From Erythrobacter sp. YJ-T3-07 (GTDB taxonomy: Bacteria > Pseudomonadota > Alphaproteobacteria > Sphingomonadales > Sphingomonadaceae): 64,000 nucleotides of DNA. The first letter of the stretch is position 1, and each line of letters begins with the position of its first letter. A program made the position numbers and the translations under genes. Positions 4,848 through 52,602 of the stretch are shown piece after piece. The DNA lies in assembly GCF_015999305.1 (NCBI RefSeq), contig NZ_JAEAGP010000001.1, forward strand, positions 1,054,001 to 1,118,000. The letters are read 5' to 3'. Below the pieces are notes generated by a model that made no database searches, was not told the origin of the DNA, and was given only the letters and a program-made list of their open reading frames with translations.

Positions 4848-5240
4848 TTACAGAAGGGCCTCTCTCGCGTCCGCAAAAACCCGATCCACCTCCAGTACCA
4901 GATCGCGCAGATGGAACGGTTTCGAGAGTACCCTGGCCTGCGGCTGGTCGGCGCTTGCCTTCAGCGAAACCGCCGCGAATCCGGTGATGAACATCACCTT
5001 CGTCTCCGGGCTGATCTCGGCGCACCGCTGGGCGAGTTCGATCCCGTCCATCTCCGGCATCACGATATCGGACAGCAGAAGGTCGTAATCGCCGCTTTCA
5101 AGCAGGGGCAGGGCCGCCGTTCCGCAATCGACCGAATCGACTGCATAGCCTGATTTTTCGAGCGCGCGGGTCAGATAGGTCCGCATCGCTTCCTCGTCCT
5201 CCGCCAAGAGGATTCGCCGTTGAAAGGTGGGTTTGCTCAT
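4848..5240 (-). CDS. cpdR: CpdR-type single-domain response regulator
   Basis: 130 residues consisting of one receiver domain. The acidic pair is in LLAEDEEAM (~12-16), the phosphoacceptor Asp is in LLLSDIVMPEMDGIELA (~58), the switch Thr is in VMFITGFAAV and the conserved Lys is in LSKPFHLRDLV. The last two segments are hallmark sequences of CpdR. In Caulobacter, unphosphorylated CpdR directs ClpXP and primes proteolysis of cell-cycle factors; phosphorylation through the CckA-ChpT relay inactivates it. No output domain is present. The gene diverges from the N-formylglutamate amidohydrolase gene, a neighbour arrangement I recall from other alphaproteobacteria. Confidence 0.9.
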   Translation of the reverse strand: MSKPTFQRRILLAEDEEAMRTYLTRALEKSGYAVDSVDCGTAALPLLESGDYDLLLSDIVMPEMDGIELAQRCAEISPETKVMFITGFAAVSLKASADQPQARVLSKPFHLRDLVLEVDRVFADAREALL

Positions 5241-5339: not shown

Positions 5340-6284
5340 ATGGAAGGCGCGCGCGGCAGCGATTCGGGACAGGGCATTAAAGGCGGAATGATCCCCGGCA
5401 GCGGGGCGCCCGCCTTCACTCTCGAGAATCTTGAGAACGCCGCAATTCCGGTCCTGATCGCGGCGCCGCATGGCGGTCGCGCCTATCCTGCGCGGATTGC
5501 GGATGCGATGCGCAATCCGGCCATCGCCCAGTTGCGGCTGGAGGATCGCCACGTCGATCGGCTGGCGCTGGCGGTGGCGCGGCAGACGGGCGCTGCCTCG
5601 CTGATTGCACACGCTCCGCGCGCAATGCTCGATCTCAACCGCGCGCCCGATGACATGGACTGGTCGATGGTGGCCGATGCGCCTGCGGACAGGCCTGCGC
5701 ACTCCAGCGCCAACCGCCGCGCGCGAAGCGGACTCGGCCTCGTCCCCCGCCGCGTTTCGGGGGTGGGTGAAATCTGGCGCACGGATCTGACCAGCGCCGA
5801 GGTGGCGGAGCGAATCGCGCTGATCCACGAACCCTATCACCGCGCGCTTGCCCGGGCGCTGGATGCGATCCGCAGGACCTGGGGCGTGGCCCTGCTGATC
5901 GATCTGCACTCGATGCCGCCGCTCGCCGCCAGCCACCCGGGGCAGCGGCCCACCGAATTCGTGATTGGCGACCGTTTCGGCGCCTCATGCGAGGATGGCG
6001 TGGCGGGCCGCGCGTTGCAGTTCCTAAGACGCAGCGATCGGGGTGTGGCGCATAACCGGCCCTATGCCGGTGGCTACGTGCTCGACCGGCACGGCAGGCC
6101 CGGTCTGGGTATCAATGCCCTCCAGCTGGAAGTGTGTCGCACACTCTACCTCGATGCACGTCTGGCGGGGGCGAGCCCCCGTCTGCCTGGGGTCGCACGG
6201 CTGATTGCCGAACTGGTACGCACGCTGGCGGACGAGGTCCTGCCGGATCGGCGCGATTACGGGTTGCCGCTGGCTGCCGAATAA
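5340..6284 (+). CDS. N-formylglutamate amidohydrolase family protein
   Basis: About 314 residues. Zinc-hydrolase landmarks of the family are IAAPHGGRAYP near the N-terminus, the LEDRHVDRLA and LDLNRAPDDMDW segments, and LLIDLHSMPP in the middle. Characterised members hydrolyse N-formyl-L-glutamate in histidine degradation (HutG-like), but no hut genes are nearby, so the substrate is uncertain. Three in-frame starts are possible: 5283 (GTG), 5340 (ATG) and 5388 (ATG, preceded by AAGGCGGA). I use 5340 as a compromise, and 5388 is quite possible. Confidence 0.82.
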   Translation: MEGARGSDSGQGIKGGMIPGSGAPAFTLENLENAAIPVLIAAPHGGRAYPARIADAMRNPAIAQLRLEDRHVDRLALAVARQTGAASLIAHAPRAMLDLNRAPDDMDWSMVADAPADRPAHSSANRRARSGLGLVPRRVSGVGEIWRTDLTSAEVAERIALIHEPYHRALARALDAIRRTWGVALLIDLHSMPPLAASHPGQRPTEFVIGDRFGASCEDGVAGRALQFLRRSDRGVAHNRPYAGGYVLDRHGRPGLGINALQLEVCRTLYLDARLAGASPRLPGVARLIAELVRTLADEVLPDRRDYGLPLAAE

Positions 6285-21074: not shown

Positions 21075-21923
21075 TCACGCAGCCTTCGATCCGCGCATAT
21101 AGCGCAGGATCATCGCCAGCTCGGCCTTGAGGTCGTGCCGGTGCACCACGCGGTCGACCATGCCGTGTTCGTGCAGGTATTCGGCGCGCTGGAAGCCTTC
21201 GGGCAGCTGTTCGCGGATCGTCTCCTGAATCACGCGCTGGCCTGCAAAGCCGATCAGTGCGCCCGGCTCCGCGATCTGCACATCGCCGAGCATCGCGTAG
21301 CTGGCGGTGACGCCGCCAGTGGTCGGGTCGGTCAGCAGCACGATATAGGGCAGGGCCGCCGCGCGCAGCTTGCGCACCATCACGGTCGCCTTGGGCATCT
21401 GCATCAGGCTGAGAATGCCTTCCTGCATGCGCGCGCCGCCCGCCGCCGTGACGACGACATAGCCGCACTTGCGCCGCAGCGCTTCGGCCGCGCCATCGCA
21501 GAAGGCCTGGCCCACCGCCATGCCCATCGAACCGCCCATGAAGTGGAAGTCCTGCACGCCCACGACCGCAGGCTGGCCGTCGATCGCCCCGCTGGCGACG
21601 GTGAAGGCATCGCGGTGCGGATTGCTGGCGCGCGCGGCCCTCAGCCGGTCGGTATAGCGCTTGGAATCGCGGAACTTGAGCGGGTCTTCCTTGACCTCGG
21701 GCTGGGGCAGCAGCGTGAAGCCCTCGTCCATCAGCATCGCGATGCGCGTGTCGGCACCGATCCGCCCGTGGTGCTCGCACCGCGGGCAGACGTAGAGATT
21801 GTCGGCATAGTCGCTTGCGAAGATCATCTCTCCGCAGCCCTTGCACTTGATCCACAACGTTTCGTCGGTGGAGCGCTTTGCCACGAAGGGCAGCGAATTG
21901 CGGACACGATTGAACCAGCTCAT
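21075..21923 (-). CDS. accD: Acetyl-CoA carboxylase carboxyltransferase subunit beta
   Basis: 282 residues. The N-terminal Cys4 zinc ribbon ([12 protein letters not shown]...[10 protein letters not shown], ~26-52) precedes the crotonase-fold carboxyltransferase domain with [11 protein letters not shown] and [15 protein letters not shown]. With AccA it transfers the carboxyl group from biotin to acetyl-CoA, the first step of fatty-acid synthesis. The ATG overlaps the trpA stop codon (ATGA), the usual alphaproteobacterial trpA-accD coupling. Confidence 0.97.
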
Positions 21924-22735
21924 GCGCCAGACTCCTTTTGGGGCGTCCTTTCCGCAGAATGGACCGCCTTGGCAAGCCTTGCGGTGAGATCGCGCAGGTG
22001 GGCGGGTGCATCCGCGCCGTGTTCGGCGACCAGATCGACCAACGCGGAACCGACGACGACGCCATCGGCAATCTTCGCGATCGCCCCGGCCTGTTCGGGC
22101 GTGCGCACGCCGAAGCCGACCGCGACGGGCAGGTCGGTCGCGGCCTTCAGCCGCTTCACCGCCGCATCGATCGAGTCCTGCGCGGCGCTCTGCTTGCCGG
22201 TGATCCCGGCGACGGAGACGTAGTAGAGGAAGCCTTCGCTCCCCTCGATCACGGTCGGCAGGCGGAAATCGTCGGTGGTCGGCGTGGCGAGCCGGATCGG
22301 GGCTATGCCCCGTTCGCGCAATGCCGGGCCGAGCGCGGAGTCCTCTTCGGGCGGGATGTCGACGCAGATCACCCCGTCCACGCCCGCGCCTGCTGCCTCT
22401 TGCGCGAACCATTCAGGCCCGCGCCGGACCATCGGGTTGGCATAGCCCATCAGCACCAGCGGCACGTCCGGGTGACGTTCGCGGAACTCGTTGGCGATCA
22501 TCAGCACGTCTTGCGTGGTGGTGCCCGCCTTCAATGCGCGGATATTCGCCGCCTGGATCGCCGGCCCATCCGCCATCGGATCGGTGAAGGGCATCCCCAG
22601 CTCGATCACATCCGCGCCGCCTTCGACCAGCGCATCGAGATTGGCGGCAGTATCGCCATCGCCCGCGGTGACGAAGCAGACGAGCGCGGGGTGCGGCTTG
22701 GCAAAAGCAGTAGCGATTCGGTTTGCGTTGTTCAC
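21920..22735 (-). CDS. trpA: Tryptophan synthase alpha chain
   Basis: 271 residues. The catalytic Glu is in [16 protein letters not shown] and the catalytic Asp in [22 protein letters not shown] and [10 protein letters not shown] are also conserved. It cleaves indole-3-glycerol phosphate and passes indole to TrpB. GTG at 22735 is preferred because AAAGGA lies 6 nt upstream and the protein then starts [10 protein letters not shown] as in relatives; an upstream in-frame start at 22774 is the alternative. trpB, normally adjacent, is 1.4 kb upstream. Confidence 0.96.
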
Positions 22736-22905
22736 CTGGGGTCCTTTGGAGCTGAACGCTGACACACCTGACACAGTGTCTTAGGGTCAAAAAATCTGCT
22801 GTCCGCGCGCATGGCAAAGAACGGCTGGGTGGGGAAGGGCGCTGAGCGGGTCATGCGGCGATTATGCCCGTGGGGAGGGGGTGTAGGACAGGGTTTCTCG
22901 TATTC

Positions 22906-22990
22906 GTCACCCCGGACTTGATCCGGGGTCCCGCTGCCTTGAGTGGCGCGCTCCGGAAGAAGCGGGATTCCGGATCAAGTCCGGGATGAC
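22906..22990. repeat. 85-bp inverted-repeat element (CCCGGACTTGATCCGGG type)
   Basis: Left arm 22906-22935 and right arm 22961-22990 are reverse complements at 27 of 30 positions, separated by 25 nt. Each arm contains an inner palindrome CCGGACTTGATCCGG. It lies in the trpA upstream region and differs in sequence from the TTGGGGAGGGG repeats elsewhere. From memory, similar GTCATCCCGGACTTGATCCGGG repeats are common intergenic elements in sphingomonads. Confidence 0.85.
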
Positions 22991-23029
22991 GATTGTGGTT
23001 GGGGGTCGACCCAGGTTTCGTCTTCCGAG

Positions 23030-23479
23030 TTATGACCCGTCATCCTCCGCACACACCACGCGCGCCGGCGTCCAGCCCTTGCGTCGCCGTGCGAGCCGAT
23101 CCTCGGTCTCTTCTCCATCGAAGGAGGCGGGGCTGGCGGGGGCGAAATCGCTCAGGCGGTCCATCGTGTTGATGTTGACGACGCCCAGCAGCCGGTCGTC
23201 GACCATTCCCACCGCGACGCAGGGCACGCCGCAATGCGCGCAGATGATGAAGTCGGTAATGCCCAGCCCGAAGCGGTAGTGGCGAATGTCATCGGATTCG
23301 CGATGCGACAGGACCAGTTCGCCCTGAGGATCGCTGGTCCACGCCGCGCCATGCTTGGTGCAGAAAGAGCAGCCGCAAGCACGCGCCACCGGGAGCGTTG
23401 GCGATTGGGTGCGCAGTTCGACCGACACCCTGCCGCAATGGCACGAGCCGTGGAGCGAGAGGGGTTCGAACGAGTTCAT
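23030..23479 (-). CDS. GFA family (glutathione-dependent formaldehyde-activating-like) protein
   Basis: 149 residues. The zinc-binding Cys pattern of the GFA fold is present: GSCHCGRV at ~11-18, ACGCSFCTKHGA at ~34-45 and CAHCGVP at ~80. Gfa of Paracoccus was proposed to help form S-hydroxymethylglutathione, but most relatives are uncharacterised. Its ATG overlaps the stop of the DUF559 gene (ATGA), and the short leader consists largely of a palindromic repeat. It is part of the insert between trpB and trpA. Confidence 0.88.
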   Translation of the reverse strand: MNSFEPLSLHGSCHCGRVSVELRTQSPTLPVARACGCSFCTKHGAAWTSDPQGELVLSHRESDDIRHYRFGLGITDFIICAHCGVPCVAVGMVDDRLLGVVNINTMDRLSDFAPASPASFDGEETEDRLARRRKGWTPARVVCAEDDGS

Positions 23480-23871
23480 CGTGTAGCCCCCTCACCTTCA
23501 GGGGAGGGGGTTGGGGGAGGGGCCTCGCGCAACATCTCTACAATCGCGCCCAGCCGTTGCAGCGCACCGTCCATGTTCTCCATCACCTCCGCATTTGTGA
23601 AGCGAACCACACGGTACCCGCGTTCCTCCAGACACCGTGTCCGCCCTGCATCATAGTCCAGCTGGCCCGCATGCGTATCGCCATCCAGCTCGATCACCAG
23701 CTTCGGATCGTTCGCAGCAAAGTCCGCGATGTATCGCCCGATCACCTTCTGCCGCCGAAACTTGATCCCGTTGAAGCGCCCGGCGCGCAGTTCGAGCCAT
23801 AGCCGCGTCTCCGGCTCGGTCATGCCCTTGCGCATGTCGCGGGCGCGGCGAGTCAGTTCGGCGTCGCGCAA
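23476..23871 (-). CDS. DUF559 endonuclease-domain protein with repeat-encoded C-terminus
   Basis: 131 residues. The DUF559/Vsr-like PD-(D/E)XK fold is visible: MTEPETRLWLELR, FRRQKVIGRYIADF (Asp50), LVIELDGDTH (Glu61, Asp63) and RGYRVVRFTNAEVM. Residues ~117-131 (PPPTPSPEGEG...) are encoded by a palindromic repeat at 23486-23524. The TTG start at 23869-23871 is preceded 7 nt upstream by GGAG that belongs to a second repeat at 23874-23912, so repeats supply both the ribosome-binding site and the tail. An alternative ATG start lies at residue 13 or 16. Biochemical function of the family is not established; see findings. Confidence 0.85.
   Translation of the reverse strand: MRDAELTRRARDMRKGMTEPETRLWLELRAGRFNGIKFRRQKVIGRYIADFAANDPKLVIELDGDTHAGQLDYDAGRTRCLEERGYRVVRFTNAEVMENMDGALQRLGAIVEMLREAPPPTPSPEGEGATR
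23486..23524. repeat. Palindromic repeat (TTGGGGAGGGG family), copy 1
   Basis: An imperfect hairpin, CCCCTCACC-TTCA-GGGGAGGGG, followed by GTTGGGGGAGGGG. It lies inside the 3' end of the DUF559 gene and directly upstream of the GFA start. Its orientation is opposite to copy 2, so the two bracket the DUF559 gene. Confidence 0.85.
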
Positions 23872-23873
23872 GG

Positions 23874-23912
23874 CCCCTCTCCCAACCCTCTCCCCTGAAG
23901 GGGAGAGGGCTT
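23874..23912. repeat. Palindromic repeat (TTGGGGAGGGG family), copy 2
   Basis: The minus strand reads CCCTCTCCCC-TTCA-GGGGAGAGGG followed by TTGGGAGAGGGG: a 10-bp perfect stem with a 4-nt loop plus tail. The tail abuts the TTG start codon of the DUF559 gene and provides its Shine-Dalgarno-like GGAG. Confidence 0.85.
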
Positions 23913-23944
23913 TTGAGCTTTGGTGCGGGACGACCCTCGATCAG

Positions 23945-24157
23945 TCATGGGTACTTAGCCTTCACCCTGAAGATCATGTTCGCCAAGGACATGATCAGGG
24001 TGACGCCGACTGCCACAGCGAGGCAGTCTATCCAATCGACGGCTTCTTCGAACAGGAAGTCTGCTAGAGCCCTGACTCCGAAAATTCCCAGAAAATAGAG
24101 CGGTGCAAGGCGCAGAGCCTCTTCAAACCGCATCCGCCTTCTGGGCCTGGCACCCAT
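23945..24157 (-). CDS. Small membrane protein coupled to trpB
   Basis: 70 residues, [15 protein letters not shown] followed by two hydrophobic stretches (APLYFLGIFGVRALADFLF and WIDCLAVAVGVTLIMSLANMIF). The ATG at 24155-24157 overlaps the trpB stop by one base (TGATG), so it should be translated with trpB. The Arg-rich N-terminus suggests it faces the cytoplasm. No family recognised. It marks the start of the insert that separates trpB from trpA. Confidence 0.65.
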   Translation of the reverse strand: MGARPRRRMRFEEALRLAPLYFLGIFGVRALADFLFEEAVDWIDCLAVAVGVTLIMSLANMIFRVKAKYP

Positions 24158-25401
24158 CAAATCTCGACCCCCAGCTTCTCCGCCACGGTGAAGATATCCT
24201 TGTCCCCGCGCCCACACAAATTCGCGAGGATGATGCTATCCTTGTCCATCTCCTTCGCGCGCTTCGCCACTGCCGCGATGGCATGCGAAGGCTCCAGCGC
24301 GGGGATGATCCCCTCGGTCCGGCACAGCAGCTGGAACGCCTCCAGCGCCTCGTCGTCGGTGACGGCGGTGTATTCGACCCGGCCTATGTCCTTCAGCCAG
24401 GCGTGTTCCGGCCCGATGCCGGGATAGTCGAGGCCAGCCGAGATCGAGTGGCCTTCGGTGATCTGGCCGTCCTCGTCCTGCAGCAGGAAGGTCTTGTTGC
24501 CGTGGAGGATGCCGGGTGCGCCGCCGGTCAGGCTGGCGGCGTGCTGGTCGCCGTCCAATCCAAGCCCCGCCGCCTCGACGCCGAGCATCTTGACGTCGGG
24601 ATCGTCGAGGAAGGGGTGGAACAGGCCGAGCGCGTTGGAGCCGCCGCCGATGCACGCGACCAGCAGGTCGGGCAGGCGGCTGGTGCGCTGCTGGATCTGC
24701 GCGCGCGCTTCGGTGCCGATCACGCTCTGGAAGTCGCGGACCATCGCGGGGTAGGGGTGCGGGCCCGCGGCGGTCCCGATGATGTAGAACGTGTCGTCCA
24801 CATTCGCGACCCAGTCGCGCAGCGCCTCGTTCATCGCGTCTTTCAGCGTGCCGCGCCCGCTGGTGACGGGCACGATTTCCGCGCCGAGCAGCTTCATCCG
24901 GAACACGTTGGGCGACTGCCGCCGCACGTCCTCTGCACCCATGTACACGATGCAGGGCAGGCCGAAGCGCGCGCACACGGTGGCGGTGGCAACGCCGTGC
25001 TGGCCCGCGCCGGTCTCTGCGATGATGCGCGTCTTGCCCATCCGGATCGCGAGCAGGATCTGCCCGATGCAGTTGTTGATCTTGTGCGCGCCGGTGTGGT
25101 TGAGCTCGTCGCGCTTGAACCAGACCTGCGCACCGCCCAGCGCTTCGGTCAGGCGCTCTGCAAAGTAGAGCGGGCTGGGGCGGCCGACATAGTGCTCCAG
25201 CAGATCCTCGAACTGGTCGGTGAAGGCCGGGTCTTTCTTCGCCTCGTCATAGGCCTGCTCCAGCGCGAGGATGTTCGGCATCAGCGTTTCGGCGACGTAG
25301 CGCCCGCCGAAGTCGCCGAAATGGCCGCGGTCATCCGGCTGCTGGCGGAAGCTGTTGGGGGTGTCGGCGGTGTCGCCCGGGCTGGTCTGGGGTGTGCGCA
25401 T
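24157..25401 (-). CDS. trpB: Tryptophan synthase beta chain
   Basis: 414 residues from [12 protein letters not shown] enzyme landmarks are [16 protein letters not shown], the PLP-lysine segment [21 protein letters not shown], the phosphate-binding [10 protein letters not shown] and the C-terminal LCGRGDKD. It condenses indole with serine to give tryptophan, in complex with TrpA. In-frame codons upstream (to 25488) are not conserved in the family. The next gene downstream is a coupled small membrane protein rather than trpA. Confidence 0.97.
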
Positions 25402-25605
25402 AGGCTTGAGCGATTGGCAGAGCCGCAAAATCATGTCCACCGGTTTGCGTAGGTAGCCCGAGCCAGTCGCCACGTCCGCGCTGCCCAAAAAACTGGGCCC
25501 CCAGGGAATCGGGCGCGGCGCGTCCCTCTATGATGGAAGCCTTATGGGTCTGGTTCGGGCCGGCGCTCCGGCGAGTGCGCGGTGGCCCATTGATGGGATG
25601 TTTCG

Positions 25606-52003: not shown

Positions 52004-52602
52004 TGACATCTCCCTCTCCCCAGCGGGGGAGAGGGTCGGGAAGAGGGGGCGCGGCTGAAAACGCTGCGCCCGCCGCTTCCCCCCTCCCAACCCTCCCCCC
52101 CGAAGGTGGGAGGGCTATTGTTTTAGCCGCCGTCACCGGCGCGCACGGGGTGGCGGGCGAGGTTCGCCTCAAGCTGTTCGGCGATGATGTCGATGCGCTC
52201 AAGGCGCACAAGACCTTCAATGACGGCCAGCTGACCGCCTCCAAGATCCGCTCCGACAACAAGGGTGGGGCGATCGCCCGCTTCGCCGAGGTTCCCGACC
52301 GCACCGCTGCCGAAGCCATGCGCGGCACCTTGCTTAGCGTATCGCGCGACGCGCTGCCCCCGCTCGAAGAAGGCGAGTTCTATCACGCCGACCTGATCGG
52401 CCTGCCGGTGGTGACCACCGACGGGGCCGCAGTCGGCCGCGTGATCGATGTTGCCAATTACGGCGCGACCGACATTGTCGAGATCGCGCATGATCCCGTG
52501 CCCGAAAAGGGCCCGAAGACCTTCATGGTCCCGATGATCCCGACTGCCGTGCCCGAATGGGATGACAAGCGCCTTGTGATCGCCGCCGAATTCGCTGAGT
52601 AG
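52003..52602 (+). CDS. rimM: Ribosome maturation factor RimM with repeat-derived N-terminus
   Basis: 199 residues. Residues ~38-199 are RimM: AAVTGAHGVAGEVRLKLFG, RTAAEAMRGTLLSV, EEGEFYHADLIGLPVVTTDG and PRC-barrel region GRVIDVANYGATDIVEI...VPMIPTAVPEWD. It binds S19 and assists 30S maturation. Residues 1-37 ([16 protein letters not shown]...LPTLPPEGG) are not RimM; they are encoded by a REPIN-like palindromic element (52011-52114). No start codon lies between the element and the RimM core, so the ATG overlapping the rpsP stop is used. Confidence 0.93.
   Translation: MTSPSPQRGRGSGRGGAAENAAPAASPLPTLPPEGGRAIVLAAVTGAHGVAGEVRLKLFGDDVDALKAHKTFNDGQLTASKIRSDNKGGAIARFAEVPDRTAAEAMRGTLLSVSRDALPPLEEGEFYHADLIGLPVVTTDGAAVGRVIDVANYGATDIVEIAHDPVPEKGPKTFMVPMIPTAVPEWDDKRLVIAAEFAE
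52011..52114. repeat. REPIN-like palindromic element inside rimM
   Basis: Hairpin CCCTCTCCCC...GGGGAGAGGG at 52012-52035 with tail TCGGGAAGAGGG; a central palindrome GGGCGCGGC/GCTGCGCCC at 52047-52071; then the inverted copy, tail CCCTCCCAA and hairpin 52091-52114. The unit keeps the rimM frame open. Confidence 0.85.

What the first reader, a model, noticed from the sequence alone, without database searches (positions are those of the whole stretch)
23474..23912. DUF559 endonuclease-like gene bracketed by inverted palindromic repeats that it also uses as its own RBS and C-terminus
Seen: two hairpin-plus-TTGGGGAGGGG-tail repeats in opposite orientation flank a PD-(D/E)XK-like DUF559 gene (Asp50, Glu61, Asp63 visible). 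One repeat supplies GGAG for its TTG start; the other encodes residues ~117-131. Known: RAYT transposases are bracketed by REPs they are thought to mobilise, and many DUF559 proteins, as I recall, have comparable low-complexity PSP-type tails. Inference: DUF559 proteins may be the mobilising or maintaining nuclease for this repeat family in sphingomonads, a REP-DUF559 system distinct from RAYT.
Basis: partly seen in the sequence, partly recalled or inferred. Interest (0 to 1): 0.82.

Follow-up and report, generated by a model that had tools for sequence, protein, structure and literature searches.

The report
Nuclease gene bracketed by its palindromes
A small DNA-cutting-enzyme gene (DUF559) in this bacterium sits between two mirror-image DNA palindromes, and in many other bacteria such genes usually do too, which makes the enzyme a good candidate for what spreads these short genomic repeats.

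Summary
The window's DUF559 gene (23476-23871, minus strand) lies between two hairpin-plus-tail repeats in opposite orientation. One supplies its Shine-Dalgarno-like stretch, the other its last residues. In 101 stretches from the same taxonomic family, 79 of 102 DUF559 genes but 6 of 835 neighbouring genes have inverted flanking repeats; in named records of several phyla 56 of 77 against 3 of 420. Protein and repeat similarity co-vary; none of 33 same-genome DUF559 pairs is a recent copy; repeat copy number rises with DUF559 number. Elsewhere in this genome the same repeats mostly form inverted doublets like REPINs, one of them in frame in ligA and absent from nine relatives. At the same sites relatives show three states: empty, solo repeat, repeat-DUF559-repeat. 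This genome has no RAYT (Y1_Tnp) match. After a DUF559 structure, the nearest solved fold is a homing endonuclease. I read this as a RAYT-like system with a PD-(D/E)XK nuclease; that the nuclease moves the repeats is inferred, not shown. Small standalone GIY-YIG nucleases are bracketed likewise (13 of 17), often by repeats that look like CGTC REPs, which a 2013 paper says lack a dedicated transposase.

The parts
23476..23871 (-). DUF559 (PF04480) nuclease gene, 131 aa, TTG start
   Evidence: ORF; PF04480 E=5.1e-37; conserved D50, E61, D63, H67; fold nearest 3hrl, then homing endonuclease I-Bth0305I
23873..23911 (-). 5' palindromic repeat of the element: hairpin outside (23910-23885), G-rich tail inside (23884-23873) that carries the SD-like stretch
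23485..23523 (+). 3' palindromic repeat of the element, opposite orientation; hairpin outside, tail inside; read as residues ~117-129 of DUF559
23030..23479 (-). GFA-domain gene (PF04828) whose start overlaps the DUF559 stop (ATGA)
23945..24217 (-). 90-aa ORF without Pfam match between DUF559 and trpB (its 5' part overlaps the trpB 3' end)
24157..25488 (-). trpB (PALP domain PF00291; named trpB by its neighbours), upstream border of the interval
21920..22774 (-). trpA (PF00290, E=1.4e-86), downstream border of the interval
52009..52122 (.). dispersed doublet of a related repeat (two hairpins in inverted order, short spacer), ends approximate
   Evidence: L016

Best explanation
The DUF559 gene and its two bracketing palindromes form one unit, built like a RAYT 'REPtron' but with a different enzyme. 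A small PD-(D/E)XK nuclease of the Vsr / I-Bth0305I type recognises its own cognate palindrome. In trans it nicks or cuts inverted doublets of that palindrome (REPIN-like, roughly 100-140 bp) at single-stranded or recombining DNA, and so copies them to new sites. The gene itself rarely moves, tends to stay at fixed sites, and can decay to a solo repeat. Shown: the bracketing and its excess over other genes, different repeat types for different genes, doublets elsewhere with the same layout, presence and absence at orthologous sites, co-variation, dose relation, nuclease fold. Inferred: recognition of the palindrome, cutting, and mobilisation in trans.
For: Bracketing: 79/102 vs 6/835 (highest of 510 shuffles 16.5 against a threshold of 18), 56/77 vs 3/420 in named records, 21 of 26 loci of the own genus. 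Layout: hairpin out, tail in; stop codon in or beyond the 3' repeat in 66 of 80; start codon a median 4 nt from the inner end of the 5' repeat, though only 28 of 80 lie within -5 to 20 nt. Specificity: protein and repeat similarity correlate (rho 0.238, null maximum 0.199 of 2000; without syntenic pairs rho 0.192, reached by 5 of 3000), while 33 same-genome pairs share no more repeat similarity than background and none exceeds 55% protein identity. Dispersed copies: 8 of 10 other sites in this genome are inverted doublets; one lies in frame in ligA, absent from nine of nine relatives, one in glyS. Orthologous sites show empty, solo and filled states. Copy number vs DUF559 number: partial rho 0.46 and 0.54 with genome size and RAYT held. 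Fold: 3hrl E=3.6e-8, homing endonuclease I-Bth0305I E=5.4e-4. No Y1_Tnp match in the genome; of 24 Y1_Tnp genes of the family 5 have flank pairs at 16 or more, none of this kind.
Against: No cleavage or binding is shown. No general target-site duplication (2 of 80 at score 11 or more; null fraction 0.006). Repeats occur without a cognate bracketed gene: G095 holds 8 copies of the window's type without the trp-site gene; G155 has 10 + 10 strand matches of the CCCCTCCC type with a single 192-aa DUF559 match that is not bracketed; 6 of 20 DUF559-less genomes hold 1-3 copies of that type, and the excess of four or more copies is not significant for the window's type (19/129 vs 0/20, p=0.08). RAYT presence also goes with repeat presence (16 of 26 vs 29 of 123; partial rho 0.25 and 0.21). 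23 of 102 DUF559 genes lack inverted flanks at the threshold; 15 lack direct ones too, 9 of them 76-133 aa long, 6 of 191-426 aa. The E. coli gene is not bracketed and a gonococcal one has a direct, not inverted, pair. The genes studied are mostly the best-scoring ones. Host phylogeny was not controlled in the dose test.
Confidence: 0.52

Rival explanations
1. Homing: the doublet is the target and the DUF559 gene is the selfish part. The nuclease cuts a doublet, and repair from the bracketed copy inserts the gene between its two palindromes, as free-standing homing endonucleases do.
For: After 3hrl the nearest solved fold is homing endonuclease I-Bth0305I. At 5 of 8 compared sites some relative without the gene carries a single repeat of the same or a similar kind at the same point.
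Against: No recent copies of one DUF559 at several doublets of a genome: best same-genome identity 55% over 33 pairs. At two sites (prfA, crtI) several relatives have no repeat at all, so the whole bracketed unit arrived, or the repeat came first unseen.
Confidence: 0.2
2. Passenger: the palindromes are spread by another enzyme, and DUF559 (perhaps a Vsr-like repair nuclease) merely sits inside such elements or profits from their terminator, SD and tail.
For: In Caulobacter cells that lack the cytosine methylase ScmA, the DUF559 protein VsrA causes a DNA damage response, and a mismatch-repair role is proposed (PMC12907096, passages). Repeats occur without a cognate gene. Repeats correlate with RAYT too.
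Against: Different repeat types for different genes and co-variation; dose relation with RAYT and size held; among 370 small neighbour genes only two GIY-YIG nucleases and one 52-aa ORF have the layout; 29 of 45 genomes with the window's repeat have no Y1_Tnp match.
Confidence: 0.2
3. Ordinary background: the repeats are abundant intergenic terminators and any isolated small gene is flanked by them.
For: Several hairpins are followed by short T runs outside and many lie between genes.
Against: Only 3 of 370 small neighbour genes and 6 of 835 in all are flanked; three of the six stand next to a DUF559 gene and share its repeat. About 12 copies of the window's type in 3.3 Mb.
Confidence: 0.03

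Closest known systems
RAYT / REPIN systems (REP-associated tyrosine transposases; REPtrons)
   Same: Nuclease gene bracketed by palindromes; dispersed inverted doublets; each enzyme gene distinct and single copy (REPIN and RAYT features from passages of PMC3116915, and PMC3733652).
   Different: Enzyme is PD-(D/E)XK DUF559, not an HUH Y1 transposase (no match in the genome); the window's repeats carry neither a GTAG nor a CGTC tag; G-rich inner tail.
CGTC-tagged REPs (Di Nocera 2013, PMC3733652, passages)
   Same: Short hairpins, mostly head-to-head dimers, mainly Alphaproteobacteria, some inside genes, not tied to RAYT.
   Different: Different hairpin and no CGTC tag; in this family repeats that look like CGTC REPs bracket standalone GIY-YIG genes instead.
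Homing endonuclease I-Bth0305I (3r3p)
   Same: Related sequence (E=3.7e-4) and fold (E=5.4e-4).
   Different: No intron host seen and no sign of the gene spreading to many target copies in a genome.
Vsr-like DUF559 nucleases (VsrA of Caulobacter; NGO0050, 3hrl)
   Same: Same Pfam family or structure hit; VsrA causes DNA damage in cells without the methylase ScmA (PMC12907096, passages).
   Different: Proposed role there is mismatch repair with a methylase; the passages seen mention no repeats.

Membership tests
DUF559 (PF04480) | profile match over the curated cut-off and catalytic residues | tested here: met
   126.5 bits vs 20.6; D50, E61, D63, H67 conserved
RAYT (TnpAREP) | Y1_Tnp / HUH domain | tested here: not met
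   protein is PF04480; no PF01797 match in the genome at E<=0.001
REPtron-like architecture | gene bracketed by palindromes that also occur dispersed | tested here: met
REPIN | inverted doublet of a REP with short spacer, dispersed in several copies | tested here: met
   8 of 10 other sites in the own genome are doublets; copy numbers modest (up to 27 of the window's type, 68 of a second type)
REPIN | mobilised by its bracketed enzyme | not testable with these tools
   needs biochemistry or population sequencing
GTAG or CGTC REP superfamilies | unpaired GTAG or CGTC tag at one end | tested here: not met
   sequence of both units of the window
Insertion sequence / classic transposon | target-site duplication of fixed length | tested here: not met
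   2 of 80 vs null 0.6%; one 20-nt duplication, 17 of 20 identical, at L192
Insertion sequence / classic transposon | near-identical copies of the gene within a genome | tested here: not met
   best identity 55% over 33 same-genome pairs of bracketed genes
Homing endonuclease | related fold | tested here: met
   3r3p, E=5.4e-4
Homing endonuclease | gene found inside its cut target at many allelic or repeated sites | tested here: inconclusive
   solo repeats at 5 of 8 sites but no intragenomic spread

The most novel reading that the evidence does not exclude
Bacterial short palindromic repeats are run by at least three unrelated nuclease classes, each gene bracketed by its own repeat: HUH RAYTs with GTAG REPs, PD-(D/E)XK DUF559 with the CCCTCTCCC...GGGAGAGGG-TTGGGWGAGGGG superfamily, and standalone GIY-YIG nucleases with CGTC REPs. 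Repeats would have taken nucleases into service again and again, and the missing mover of CGTC REPs would be GIY-YIG.
Probability: 0.38. Interest if true: 0.93.

Novelty: new variant of a known kind. Interest (0 to 1): 0.82.

Why it matters
[quoted passage not shown] CGTC REPs are said to lack a dedicated transposase (PMC3733652, passages). A DUF559 nuclease bracketed by its own repeats in several phyla gives a specific enzyme, a specific substrate and a direct test. It would also explain the low-complexity proline-rich tails of many DUF559 proteins: they are read from the repeat. Seven full-text searches for DUF559, GIY-YIG, Vsr or 'endonuclease domain-containing' with repeat, transposase or palindrome terms (open-licence library only) listed no paper whose title or abstract start links them; four of the seven found nothing at all, and of the listed papers I looked into one (PMC12907096).

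Tried and rejected
Chance or ordinary intergenic clutter: rejected by neighbour-gene controls. RAYT as the owner of these repeats: no match in the own genome, and of 24 Y1_Tnp genes scored 5 had flank pairs at 16 or more, of other sequence; but RAYT presence does correlate with repeat presence, so a helper role is not excluded. Classic transposon with target duplications: no general duplication. Defence system: no PADLOC match. The first genome-contig query (30-sequence alignment) gave no usable stretch. One strand (L245) had wrong coordinates and is ignored. The L173 site was in the flank query but its relatives were not fetched; one fetched interval (L213) matched on one flank only. In the genus the weak ~195-aa DUF559 class (a match near E=1e-10 in nine of ten genomes) was fetched only for the own genome (L175, not bracketed). 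Not every DUF559 match was studied: 100 stretches were taken from the listed matches, and the list was cut, so low-scoring members are under-represented. Of 104 matches in these 101 stretches 103 were called as genes and 102 had enough flank. 3 of 80 named loci were too near a contig end to score; 1 of 30 GIY-YIG loci was too short. The 149-genome tables and the scores recounted for one search were typed by hand from the outputs.

Full report
What is there. The window is G000:C1:1054001-1118000 of a 3.3-Mb genome. Among the named DUF559 relatives the closest are from Citromicrobium and Alteriqipengyuania, and two genomes of its genus group match named Citromicrobium contigs by length and position. 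On the minus strand, between trpB and trpA, lie a 90-aa ORF, a 131-aa DUF559 gene and a GFA-domain gene. The DUF559 gene is bracketed by two 39-nt units in opposite orientation, hairpin outside and G-rich tail inside. The tail of one gives GGGAGAGGGGCC in front of the TTG start; the other is read as about residues 117-129, and the stop overlaps the GFA start. Residues 121-130 have mean pLDDT 46.

Is it more than chance. I fetched 100 stretches, most of about 10 kb, around DUF559 matches of 149 genomes of the family and added the window. Genes were called with a hexamer model, 1110 in all. A local alignment of the left flank against the reverse complement of the right flank scored 18 or more for 79 of 102 DUF559 genes and 6 of 835 neighbours (3 of 609 not next to DUF559; 3 of 370 small ones); the highest of 510 shuffles was 16.5. 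Counting inverted or direct repeats: 87 of 102 vs 19 of 835. Of the 15 without either, six have 191-426 aa and nine 76-133 aa. In 77 scorable loci of named records, most of them Alphaproteobacteria and many from metagenome bins, with single bracketed cases labelled Nitrospirae, Chloroflexi (Dehalococcoidia) and NC10, it was 56 inverted and 63 either, against 3 and 6 of 420 other ORFs. Of seven further records, inverted repeats bracket DUF559 in two Deinococcus plasmids, a Sphingomonas and an Azospirillum plasmid; a gonococcal gene (3hrl is NGO0050 of that species; identity not checked) has a long direct pair that includes such a hairpin; the Synechocystis and E. coli genes fall below the threshold.

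Different genes, different repeats. In 80 bracketed elements from 55 genomes the hairpins are variants of CCCTCTCCC..GGGAGAGGG, CCCCTCCC..GGGAGGGG, CCTTCTCCC..GGGAGAAGG and CCTCCCC..GGGGAGG, with tails such as TTGGGAGAGGGG, CTGGGGGTGGG, TTGGATGAGGGG or GGGTGAGGG, some with a second hairpin. Protein identity and repeat similarity correlate between genomes, also when syntenic pairs are left out (2852 pairs, rho 0.192, 5 of 3000 permutations reach it). The effect is modest: mean repeat similarity rises from 0.33 to 0.56 over the identity range. Within a genome the bracketed DUF559 genes are at most 55% identical over 33 pairs and their repeats are no more alike than background. That resembles RAYTs, described as single-copy and distinct within a genome (PMC3116915, passages).

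Dispersed copies. The own genome has 12 places of the window's repeat at up to 3 mismatches; two bracket DUF559. Of the other ten, eight are inverted doublets with hairpins outside (partner scores 13-23; the other two 7 and 8). One lies in frame in ligA; nine of nine other genus genomes lack it. One lies in frame in glyS, where a relative carries a doublet of another repeat family at the same spot. Such doublets look like the DUF559 element with the gene replaced by a short spacer.

Sites in relatives. In the genus 21 of 26 fetched DUF559 loci have inverted flanks at 18 or more. For eight sites I fetched 57 orthologous intervals from genomes of the genus where the DUF559 search had given no match. 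At five sites some relative carries one repeat of the same or a similar kind at the same point: trp (L195, hairpin only), pdh (L199, L200, L202, L204), topA (L211), gyrB (L218), crtI (L245). At the prfA site all nine relatives, and at crtI three, show neither gene nor repeat. At the ispE site the G095 element is flanked by a 20-nt duplication (17 of 20 identical) of the start of ispE, and three relatives carry a doublet of another type there. In 80 elements there is no general target duplication. Loss by recombination between the repeats would explain solos beside direct pairs (pdh); which state is older was not resolved. Gene names of these sites other than trpA and trpB are read by eye from translations.

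Dose and confounders. The window's repeat type is in 45 of 129 genomes with DUF559 and 0 of 20 without (p=0.0005); at four or more copies 19 vs 0 (p=0.08). A second type is in 63 of 129 and 6 of 20 (p=0.15), and at four or more copies in 41 of 129 and 0 of 20 (p=0.002). Copy numbers rise with DUF559 number: rho 0.50 and 0.57, partial 0.46 and 0.54 with size and RAYT held. Host phylogeny was not controlled, and each element adds up to two copies by itself. RAYT presence keeps a smaller partial correlation (0.25, 0.21). Within the genus one repeat type roughly tracks its DUF559: three carriers and the one relative with a solo hold 2-6 places, two others one each, four none. Another type does not: non-carriers hold many copies.

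Mechanism. DUF559 is a PD-(D/E)XK-type nuclease by conserved residues (motif name recalled) and fold: nearest solved structures are 3hrl and the homing endonuclease I-Bth0305I, with Vsr at rank 16 and a weak E of 0.14. In Caulobacter without the methylase ScmA a DUF559 protein causes a DNA damage response (PMC12907096, passages). The simplest reading is a nuclease that acts on its own palindromes in trans, as RAYTs are thought to do. Homing into doublets and a passenger role are the live rivals.

A parallel that raises the stakes. Two of the three control genes with high scores that do not adjoin a DUF559 gene are standalone GIY-YIG nucleases. Testing that family in 30 loci: 13 of 17 small GIY-YIG proteins (130 aa or less) are bracketed, 0 of 12 larger ones, 1 of 29 other ORFs. 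Their repeats are of another kind; 12 of the 13 hold CGTC, its complement or GTCAT (a loose text test), several as CGTCAT-hairpin-TCC, like the CGTC REPs that 'apparently lack a dedicated transposase' (PMC3733652, passages). The match to the CGTC families is by eye, and their copy numbers were not counted.

Verdict.

Noticed in passing
L332-L361; L115:8570-8885; L148:1504-1831: Standalone GIY-YIG nuclease genes are bracketed by inverted repeats, often CGTC-like (13 of 17 small ones; 0 of 12 larger GIY-YIG proteins). Candidate missing enzyme of CGTC REPs.
   Followed up: partly
window 22904-22992: Inverted pair CGTCACCCCGGACTTGATCCGGGG... / ...CCGGATCAAGTCCGGGATGACG (32-nt arms, 91% complementary), by eye a CGTC-type dimer, beyond the 3' end of the GFA gene; a similar one sits in frame in glyS of a relative (L364) and at the L176 site of several relatives.
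   Followed up: partly
L014 (G000:C1:1161371) and L008 (G000:C1:1821792): Doublets of DUF559-type repeats inserted in frame in ligA and glyS of the window's own genome, adding about 30 residues.
   Followed up: yes
L192 (G095): 4903-4922 and 5399-5418: 20 nt of the start of ispE is duplicated on both sides of the DUF559 element, an exception to the general lack of target duplications.
   Followed up: partly
L384, L387 (Deinococcus plasmids); L388 (Sphingomonas): DUF559 sits at two different places and against the reading direction inside the hpa cluster of two Deinococcus species, and between sufB and sufC in Sphingomonas: signs of insertion into operons.
   Followed up: no
L386 (N. gonorrhoeae): The DUF559 gene here is flanked by a long direct repeat (score 80) that contains a CCCTCTCCC...GGGAAAGAG hairpin and a GAGAGAGGG tail.
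   Followed up: no
L001 / L172 (G000:C1:1882943): Another DUF559 copy of the own genome has an in-frame TAG and lies between direct copies of a long repeat; four relatives keep a single such or similar repeat there.
   Followed up: yes
window 21920-25488: The trpB-trpA interval holds a 90-aa ORF, DUF559 and a GFA gene; four relatives without DUF559 there carry other sequence in the interval (L195-L198).
   Followed up: partly
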